NCBI GenBank assembly: GCA_025055075.1 | Contig: JANWYV010000013.1 | Location: 62,001-126,000, forward strand | Reading direction: 5' to 3' | Length of the DNA stretch: 64,000 nucleotides | Source of the DNA: Blastocatellia bacterium | GTDB taxonomy: Bacteria > Acidobacteriota > Blastocatellia > HR10 | Shown: in pieces, positions 9,894 to 11,489 of the stretch | How positions within the stretch are numbered: position 1 is the first letter of the stretch | Layout of the letters: every line of letters starts with the position of its first letter | Translations under genes and position numbers: made by a program | Notes under the pieces: generated by a model | What the model saw: the letters and a program-made list of their open reading frames with translations, nothing else | Database searches by the model: none | Told to the model about the DNA's origin: nothing

Positions 9894-9968
9894 TAAGGCT
9901 GCCTCATGACAGCCCGATGTTTGAAAATCAGCAATGAGTCCTGGACCTGGGAAGGCTCAAGATCGAAG

Positions 9969-9989
9969 GGGGGTAACAGGGGTTATCAC
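9969..9989 (+). repeat. CRISPR leader direct repeat, copy 1
   Basis: A 21-base element (GGGGGTAACAGGGGTTATCAC) that recurs exactly at 10073-10093. It holds an imperfect inverted repeat, GTAAC/GTTAT. Confidence 0.85.
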
Positions 9990-10072
9990 CGAGAGGCTAA
10001 GCTGAGCAGCTTCAGTCTTTTATCCGGAAAAAAGCCCTCTCCGAAGGGCATCTCCGAGGCCATTTTTTCTGA

Positions 10073-10093
10073 GGGGGTAACAGGGGTTATCAC
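10073..10093 (+). repeat. CRISPR leader direct repeat, copy 2
   Basis: Second exact copy of the 21-base element at 9969-9989, 104 bases downstream and ending 47 bases before the first CRISPR repeat. Likely a leader protein-binding or integration element. Confidence 0.85.
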
Positions 10094-10140
10094 TTTCGGC
10101 CTCCTAACCCATTGAGCCGCTAAGACTAAACCCCCCCGCT

Positions 10141-11489
10141 CTCGGAAACCAGGACTCGCTTCAAAGAGGATTGCGACACAGTAGTTTTTGAATCACGACG
10201 TCGATATCTGGGTGGTAAATCTCGGAAACCAGGACTCGCTTCAAAGAGGATTGCGACAGCGCGGGAGTAAAGAGGGTGGGCACGCGGCCCACCCTCCAGC
10301 TCGGAAACCAGGACTCGCTTCAAAGAGGATTGCGACTTAATCAGGTTCCCCACCAGCTCAGTGGGGAACCCAAAACCTCGGAAACCAGGACTCGCTTCAA
10401 AGAGGATTGCGACTCGCCTCCCGCGTGCTCGCGGGAGGCGATCCCAGCGACCTCGGAAACCAGGACTCGCTTCAAAGAGGATTGCGACACCCCACAACCA
10501 TGTGCAGGAGGCCAGCCAACAGTTTCCCTCGGAAACCAGGACTCGCTTCAAAGAGGATTGCGACTCGGCTACCACACCGTGATCCCGAATTATCGGGTGC
10601 CGCCCCTCGGAAACCAGGACTCGCTTCAAAGAGGATTGCGACTCTTTATGGCCGTCGCGACTTCCTCAGCTAGGGACGCTGGCTCGGAAACCAGGACTCG
10701 CTTCAAAGAGGATTGCGACTCGACGACGATTTTAACCCCAACATTGTTCTGAACTTCCTCTCGGAAACCAGGACTCGCTTCAAAGAGGATTGCGACAGCT
10801 TCACGACGAACACTAATTCCTTGTTGTCCCTATCCATACTCGGAAACCAGGACTCGCTTCAAAGAGGATTGCGACTTCTGGTCGGGAGAGAAGCGCCTCT
10901 TGGGCCGAACGACCAACTCGGAAACCAGGACTCGCTTCAAAGAGGATTGCGACCCGAGAACTCCATGGGCCAGAGCTCGCGGGGCACGAACACATCTCGG
11001 AAACCAGGACTCGCTTCAAAGAGGATTGCGACGCATAGTGTGTGCTCGCATAGTGTGTGCCCCTCCACCACATGCTCGGAAACCAGGACTCGCTTCAAAG
11101 AGGATTGCGACATCTTGCTGCCACTCACGCCCATTTTATGGTCCACCTTCACCTCGGAAACCAGGACTCGCTTCAAAGAGGATTGCGACGGCCCGGTGTC
11201 CCCAACCTTATGCTCGACGCTAATTCCTCGGAAACCAGGACTCGCTTCAAAGAGGATTGCGACTCAACGCCACCCGAGGCCGCCACGCAAACCCAAGAAC
11301 TCGGAAACCAGGACTCGCTTCAAAGAGGATTGCGACACAACCAGCAGGGGGTCATCCCCCCGCCGGATGATGTCTCGGAAACCAGGACTCGCTTCAAAGA
11401 GGATTGCGACAGCTCTCGTTCCATGGAGTGAGAGCGTTGTTCTGGCTCCATCTCGGAAACTAGGATTGGCTTCAAACGAGGGGTGTGAG
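10141..11489 (+). CRISPR. CRISPR array: 17 intact 37-nt repeats plus one degenerate repeat, 17 spacers
   Basis: Repeats start at 10141, 10221, 10300, 10377, 10452, 10528, 10606, 10683, 10760, 10839, 10917, 10996, 11075, 11153, 11227, 11300 and 11374. Each is 37 bases, begins CTCGGAAACC and ends AGAGGATTGCGAC. Spacers are 36-43 bases. A diverged 18th repeat starts at 11452. The ATTGCGAC end resembles the 8-nt 5' handle left by Cas6 (ATTGAAAC-like), and the degenerate copy lies at the right end. Both imply transcription left to right with the leader at 9810-10140. This repeat style is common in type I and III systems, but the subtype cannot be set because no cas gene is in the window. The long open frames across the array arise from its periodicity. 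Confidence 0.98.

What the first reader, a model, noticed from the sequence alone, without database searches (positions are those of the whole stretch)
10272..10441. Three consecutive CRISPR spacers each contain a perfect 10-12 bp inverted repeat
Seen: spacer 2 has GAGGGTGGGC/GCCCACCCTC (10272-10296, 5-base loop), spacer 3 GGTTCCCCAC/GTGGGGAACC (10344-10370, 7-base loop), spacer 4 TCGCCTCCCGCG/CGCGGGAGGCGA (10414-10441, 4-base loop). Weaker ones occur in spacers 6, 16 and 17. Perfect stems of this length are not expected by chance in ~40-base spacers. They resemble intrinsic terminator hairpins such as those at 2191 and 11566. Inference: the adaptation machinery may favour structured or terminator-derived fragments, possibly from RNA via a reverse-transcriptase-Cas1, or the crRNAs fold in a useful way.
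Basis: partly seen in the sequence, partly recalled or inferred. Interest (0 to 1): 0.72.

Follow-up and report, generated by a model that had tools for sequence, protein, structure and literature searches.

The report
Hairpin-biased spacers in RT-free type III CRISPR
A heat-loving acidobacterium and its relatives fill their CRISPR memory with an unusual share of hairpin-forming fragments, often cut exactly at the foot of the hairpin, which suggests that their reverse-transcriptase-free capture machinery picks up folded single-stranded pieces of invader DNA.

Summary
Spacers 2-4 of the window's 17-spacer array carry perfect stems of 10, 10 and 12 bp, far above chance. The array belongs to a type III system: III-A and III-B effectors, and a plain Cas1-Cas2 beside a second array with the same leader. 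No reverse transcriptase (PF00078) was found in six genomes of the family, so RT-Cas1 is not supported. The wider idea, that adaptation favours structured DNA, is supported. Without the trio, family spacers are still hairpin-enriched about threefold. Related arrays in another family of the order replicate it strongly (stem>=7: 16 of 122, about 2 expected). Thermus and Synechocystis arrays do not show it clearly. A sharper, post hoc signature appeared: an inverted-repeat arm starts exactly at spacer position 1 in 26 of 307 spacers (1.1-1.5% per spacer in host and phage DNA, p about 2e-12), not at the other edge (7). Best reading: capture of hairpin-bearing single-stranded invader DNA, as reported for RT-free type III-A systems, with the hairpin foot setting one prespacer end. 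No protospacer was found, so the source and the end-setting step remain inferred. Terminator origin is plausible for a few spacers, not general.

The parts
9968..10140 (+). Leader of the array, with two copies of GGGGGTAACAGGGGTTATCAC (9969-9989, 10073-10093)
   Evidence: aligns well with the leader of the second array on contig C46, next to cas1-cas2
10141..11488 (+). CRISPR array: 17 identical 37-nt repeats CTCGGAAACCAGGACTCGCTTCAAAGAGGATTGCGAC, 17 spacers of 36-43 nt, degenerate last repeat at 11452-11488
   Evidence: repeat ends in ATTGCGAC; the array is leader-proximal at the left
10258..10299 (+). Spacer 2; hairpin 10272-10296, 10-bp stem, 5-base loop; on the target strand the hairpin is followed by TTTACT
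10337..10376 (+). Spacer 3; hairpin 10344-10370, 10-bp stem, 7-base loop
10414..10451 (+). Spacer 4; hairpin 10414-10441, 12-bp stem, 4-base loop, starting exactly at spacer position 1 (edge-locked class)

Best explanation
The array belongs to a type III-A/III-B CRISPR system with a plain, RT-free Cas1-Cas2. Its adaptation step, shared with related families of the order, preferentially captures single-stranded invader DNA that folds into hairpins (shown: the enrichment; inferred: that it acts at capture, on folded ssDNA). In many cases the foot of the hairpin coincides with one end of the captured piece, the end that becomes spacer position 1, which is the 3' end of the strand complementary to the crRNA (shown). 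The likely reason is that a hairpin at a 3' end blocks 3'-to-5' trimming or presents the duplex end that Cas1 holds (inferred). The piece is stored so that the crRNA tends to be antisense to invader mRNA, as type III targeting requires (shown by the start-codon orientation). Spacers 2-4 are three consecutive captures of such hairpins from an unidentified mobile element.
For: Trio far above chance. Family spacers without the trio: stem>=6, loop<=8: 18 vs about 6 in GC-matched host DNA. Independent arrays in another family: stem>=7: 16 of 122 vs 1.9; stem>=8: 8 vs 0.6; a further array of the same genome (C63) repeats it, 6 of 58 vs 1.0. Edge lock: inverted-repeat arm>=6 starting exactly at position 1 in 26 of 307 deduplicated spacers; baselines are 1.1-1.5% in host, P23-45 and lambda DNA; p about 2e-12; distal edge 7, not significant; left vs right p = 0.0013; seen separately in the family (11 vs 4) and the order set (15 vs 3). 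Most edge-locked loops are short (17 of 26 are 8 nt or less). System assignment: csm and cmr genes, Cas6, cas1-cas2 beside the twin array and leader, no RT. Antisense orientation: strong SD+ATG on the crRNA-complementary strand 12, sense strand 0, host DNA 2.4 per strand; order set 12 vs 5, 5.0 expected. Literature: review PMC9048733 reports that RT-free type III-A systems take spacers preferentially from ssDNA hairpins (single-strand origins, oriT, attenuator terminators, rRNA/tRNA) and near start codons.
Against: No protospacer was found for any spacer, so it is not shown that the hairpins lie in an invader's ssDNA, nor which strand was captured. Natural arrays are filtered by selection, so bias at capture is inferred. 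The edge statistic was found after looking at the data, although it holds in two separate clades. Most order-level spacers come from one genome (G021), which also carries an RT-Cas1 that could act in trans. Thermus type III arrays (53 spacers), whose repeat has the same ATTGCGAC end, show no bias, so it is not a general type III property.
Confidence: 0.5

Rival explanations
1. RNA-derived acquisition: 3' ends of invader transcripts, trimmed back to a terminator or other hairpin, are reverse transcribed (RT-Cas1 or another RT) and integrated.
For: Fits the hairpin at the 3' end of the mRNA-sense strand and the antisense crRNAs; an RT-Cas1 (RVT_1 + GIIM + Cas1, 803 aa) exists in the order-level relative G021; a few spacers look like real terminators.
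Against: No PF00078 RT in six family genomes, where the edge lock is still 11 vs 4; the RT-Cas1 sits beside a different array with a weaker bias (3 of 69; comparison p = 0.058); T tracts mostly absent.
Confidence: 0.12
2. Snap-back synthesis: the 3' end of a single-stranded fragment folds on itself and is extended by a polymerase, so the inverted repeat is made during capture and is absent from the invader.
For: Explains why the repeat starts exactly at one edge, is perfect, and can have long loops (9 of 26 edge-locked cases have loops of 10-30).
Against: Interior hairpins such as spacers 2 and 3 are also enriched and cannot be made this way; related hairpins recur with variation in several spacers (C41_93/C63_48 with matched changes in both arms; C63_24/37/46; C41_66/69), as expected for pre-existing elements.
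Confidence: 0.15
3. Source composition: the spacers simply come from mobile elements that are unusually rich in hairpins; capture is unbiased.
For: Related hairpins recur among G021 spacers, as if some elements carry hairpin families; the trio is consecutive (p = 3.5e-4), as if from one element; a viral contig (L063) carries an intergenic hairpin with the same 10-bp stem as spacer 2, 28 bases after a predicted ORF's stop codon.
Against: P23-45 and lambda DNA have only 1-2% of 39-mers with stem>=7 against 10% of the spacers; composition alone gives no one-sided edge lock.
Confidence: 0.15
4. Functional selection: hairpin-bearing crRNAs or targets work better (for example a partly palindromic guide matches transcripts of either strand), so such spacers are retained.
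For: Natural arrays are post-selection; a palindromic core is complementary to both strands (inference only, from the sequences).
Against: A guide with a 10-12 bp internal stem should hinder target pairing; selection for function does not predict a start exactly at position 1; no such bias in Thermus type III arrays.
Confidence: 0.08

Closest known systems
RT-free type III-A adaptation of Streptococcus thermophilus (Zhang et al. 2022, NAR 50:1562) and Staphylococcus epidermidis (Aviram et al. 2022), as summarised in PMC9048733
   Same: No RT; type III; preference for hairpin-forming DNA; enrichment near gene starts
   Different: Those are new spacers in laboratory strains with known sources; here the trace is in natural arrays of thermophilic Acidobacteriota, with an exact edge position of the hairpin that I did not find described. 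The two primary papers are not held, so this rests on the review.
RT-Cas1 type III systems (Marinomonas mediterranea III-B, Vibrio vulnificus III-D, Fusicatenibacter)
   Same: Type III; spacers antisense to transcripts would be useful; an RT-Cas1 occurs in the order-level relative G021
   Different: No RT in the window's genome or family; the strongest hairpin bias goes with the RT-free Cas1
Thermus thermophilus type III-A/III-B arrays on pTT27
   Same: Repeat ends in ATTGCGAC, III-A plus III-B effectors, RT-free Cas1
   Different: 53 spacers show no hairpin or edge bias

Membership tests
Type III (III-A/III-B) CRISPR-Cas | Cas10 with Csm or Cmr effector genes in the genome | tested here: met
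   Csm1-Csm5 and Csx1 on C3; Cas10b, Cmr1, Cmr3, Cmr4, Cmr6 on C3/C8/C23
Type III (III-A/III-B) CRISPR-Cas | This array is served by a Cas1-Cas2 of the same genome with the same repeat and leader | tested here: met
   Identical repeat and aligned leader beside cas1-cas2 on C46; array and effector genes are on different contigs, so their pairing is inferred
RT-Cas1 type III system (RNA spacer acquisition) | Reverse transcriptase fused to or beside Cas1 | tested here: not met
   No PF00078 match in the window's genome (98.8% complete) or five family relatives; RTs outside PF00078 not tested
RT-free hairpin-preferring type III adaptation (S. thermophilus type) | Spacers enriched in hairpin-forming sequence | tested here: met
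RT-free hairpin-preferring type III adaptation (S. thermophilus type) | Protospacers at ssDNA hairpins (single-strand origins, oriT, attenuators) of identified elements | tested here: inconclusive
   No protospacers in own and genus genomes, phages, plasmids, or exact-pattern viral scans
RT-free hairpin-preferring type III adaptation (S. thermophilus type) | Bias present in freshly acquired, unselected spacers | not testable with these tools
   needs an acquisition experiment
Terminator-derived spacers | Hairpin followed by a T tract on the transcribed strand | tested here: inconclusive
   One of 34 hairpin spacers has 5 or more T in the 8 bases after the hairpin; T fraction 31% vs 21% overall

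The most novel reading that the evidence does not exclude
In this clade the hairpin is not just preferred but defines the prespacer: a plain Cas1-Cas2 accepts a single-stranded fragment whose 3' hairpin foot becomes the 3' end integrated on the spacer side, a PAM-free way of choosing one end and one orientation of a type III spacer.
Probability: 0.33. Interest if true: 0.75.

Novelty: new variant of a known kind. Interest (0 to 1): 0.58.

Why it matters
How type III systems without a reverse transcriptase choose their fragments, and how they orient them without a PAM, is not settled. A natural spacer set in which the hairpin foot coincides with one spacer edge gives a concrete, testable rule for end selection. 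It also suggests that the hairpin preference seen in laboratory streptococcal and staphylococcal type III-A systems has a counterpart in unrelated thermophiles.

Tried and rejected
Protospacers: blastn of the whole array against phages and plasmids, of order-level arrays, against all genus genomes, and six exact viral-contig scans for spacers 2, 3, 4 and C41_46: no protospacer. The 16-mer hits for spacer 3 do not extend beyond the pattern. Self-derived terminators: no match in the own genome. RT-Cas1: rejected for this genome. Rfam: no match in the array region. A general type III property: not supported by Thermus and Synechocystis controls.

Full report
1. What is there. The window (contig C13 of an acidobacterial genome, 3.02 Mb, 98.8% complete; congeners are Bacterium HR08/HR10, an Acidobacteriota MAG and a Blastocatellia MAG) holds an array of 17 identical 37-nt repeats ending in ATTGCGAC with 17 spacers. 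The degenerate last repeat at 11452-11488 marks the trailer end; the leader is on the left, so spacers 2-4 are among the newest. The three inverted repeats exist exactly as described and are well beyond chance. As single-stranded DNA they fold at -13, -12 and -18.4 kcal/mol with z-scores of -3.7 to -5.7.

2. Which system. The same repeat and an aligned leader recur on contig C46 next to cas1 and cas2. Effectors are type III: Cas10a/Csm2-5 and Csx1 on C3, and Cas6, Cmr1, Cas10b, Cmr3, Cmr4 and Cmr6 split over C23, C8 and C3. PF00078 finds no reverse transcriptase in this genome or five relatives. A second, I-B-like cas4-cas1-cas2 lies on C2. That the C13 array is read by the type III effectors is inferred from the repeat; arrays and effectors lie on different contigs.

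3. Is the bias wider than the trio? In 135 spacers from the same-repeat arrays of six family genomes, the only stems>=10 (loop<=8) are the trio, which sit consecutively (p = 3.5e-4). Leaving the trio out, stem>=6 with loop<=8 is found in 18 of 132 against about 6 in GC-matched host DNA and 5 in shuffles. A second, independent set from another family of the same order (G021 C41 and G022, 122 spacers) gives stem>=7 in 16 against 1.9, and stem>=8 in 8 against 0.6; G021 C63 gives 6 of 58 against 1.0. Background rates of stem>=7 in P23-45, lambda, window and G021 DNA are 1.0-2.1%, against 31 of 307 in the deduplicated RT-free-Cas1 arrays.

4. Controls. Thermus thermophilus pTT27 type III arrays, whose repeat also ends in ATTGCGAC, show nothing (53 unique spacers), nor do Thermus type I arrays (29 spacers). 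Synechocystis pSYSA I-D and III-B show nothing; III-D is slightly raised (4 against 1.6 at stem>=6, too few to call). So the bias belongs to this clade's system, not to type III arrays at large.

5. An edge lock. Listing the hairpins showed that many begin at spacer position 1. The clean statistic is the longest arm that starts exactly at an edge and recurs as an inverted repeat inside the spacer. Arms>=6 at position 1: 27 of 311 (26 of 307 after removing near-duplicates), with 3.6 expected; the offset profile is 27, 7, 4, 8, 7... from the left and 7, 5, 5, 5, 3... from the right. The family (11 left, 4 right) and the order set (15 left, 3 right) both show it. This was a post hoc find; the two clades are a partial check. 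By the standard integration chemistry (established knowledge of Cas1-Cas2), position 1 is where the 3' end of the crRNA-complementary strand joined the array, so the hairpin foot sits at a 3' end.

6. Reverse transcriptase. The order-level relative G021 does encode an RT-Cas1 fusion (RVT_1, GIIM, Cas1), beside its own 71-repeat array with a variant repeat. That array is less biased (3 of 69 stem>=7) than the two arrays of the window type (p = 0.058). G021 C41 lies beside a Cas1 that is 61% identical to the window genome's RT-free Cas1. So the RT is neither needed for the bias nor best correlated with it.

7. What the hairpins are. No protospacer was found. Some spacers are terminator-like: G021 C41 spacer 11 reads TGGGGGAGCAGAAGACTCCCCCATTTTTTTT on the target strand. 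In general T tracts are weak. Variant copies of the same hairpin occur in several spacers, including matched changes in both arms (CACCGAC-N5-GTCGGTG and CCACCGAT-N5-ATCGGTGG), which suggests natural, multi-copy hairpins of mobile elements. A viral contig carries an intergenic hairpin with the same 10-bp stem as spacer 2, 28 bases after a predicted ORF's stop codon; it is not the protospacer.

8. Orientation. With a strong SD motif and an in-frame ATG, 12 of 135 family spacers show a gene start on the crRNA-complementary strand and none on the other; host DNA predicts 2.4 per strand. The order set gives 12 against 5, with 5.0 expected. crRNAs thus tend to be antisense to invader mRNA around translation starts.

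9. Mechanism. A review (PMC9048733) reports that RT-free type III-A systems take up ssDNA hairpins and sequences near start codons, with the displaced coding strand as likely source. The data here fit this and add the edge lock. The favoured model is capture of hairpin-bearing ssDNA, with the hairpin foot setting the 3' end by blocking trimming. Capture on ssDNA, the trimming step and the source element are inferred. Snap-back synthesis, a hairpin-rich source and RNA origin remain open.

Noticed in passing
L148 15622-18033 (G021 C44): RT-Cas1 fusion (RVT_1 + group II maturase domain + Cas1, 803 aa) beside a 71-repeat array with a variant of the window repeat; a close RT is at a contig end in G020 (L151).
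   Followed up: partly
G002 C2:74341, C14:70066, C18:9685, C23:40570, C30:9649, C37:20380, C54:7811: Solitary copies of the CRISPR repeat scattered over one genome, outside arrays; possibly off-target integration or array remnants.
   Followed up: no
G021 C41 spacers 48/49 and 25/26, C44 spacers 62/63 (L141, L148): Neighbouring spacers overlap by 31, 26 and 23 nt in the same orientation, as if successive captures came from the same spot.
   Followed up: no
L047 1471-3084 (G003): A Csx1-like CARF-HEPN gene split into two reading frames directly beside the array.
   Followed up: no
L071 11716-13224 (G000 C3): CARF-HEPN protein with a Csx3-like C-terminal domain between the III-A and III-B gene blocks.
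   Followed up: no
G001-G003 and G021 arrays (L039-L048, L141, L148, L150): Spacers whose complement carries a ribosome-binding site plus ATG are enriched in antisense orientation (12 vs 0 in the family set).
   Followed up: partly
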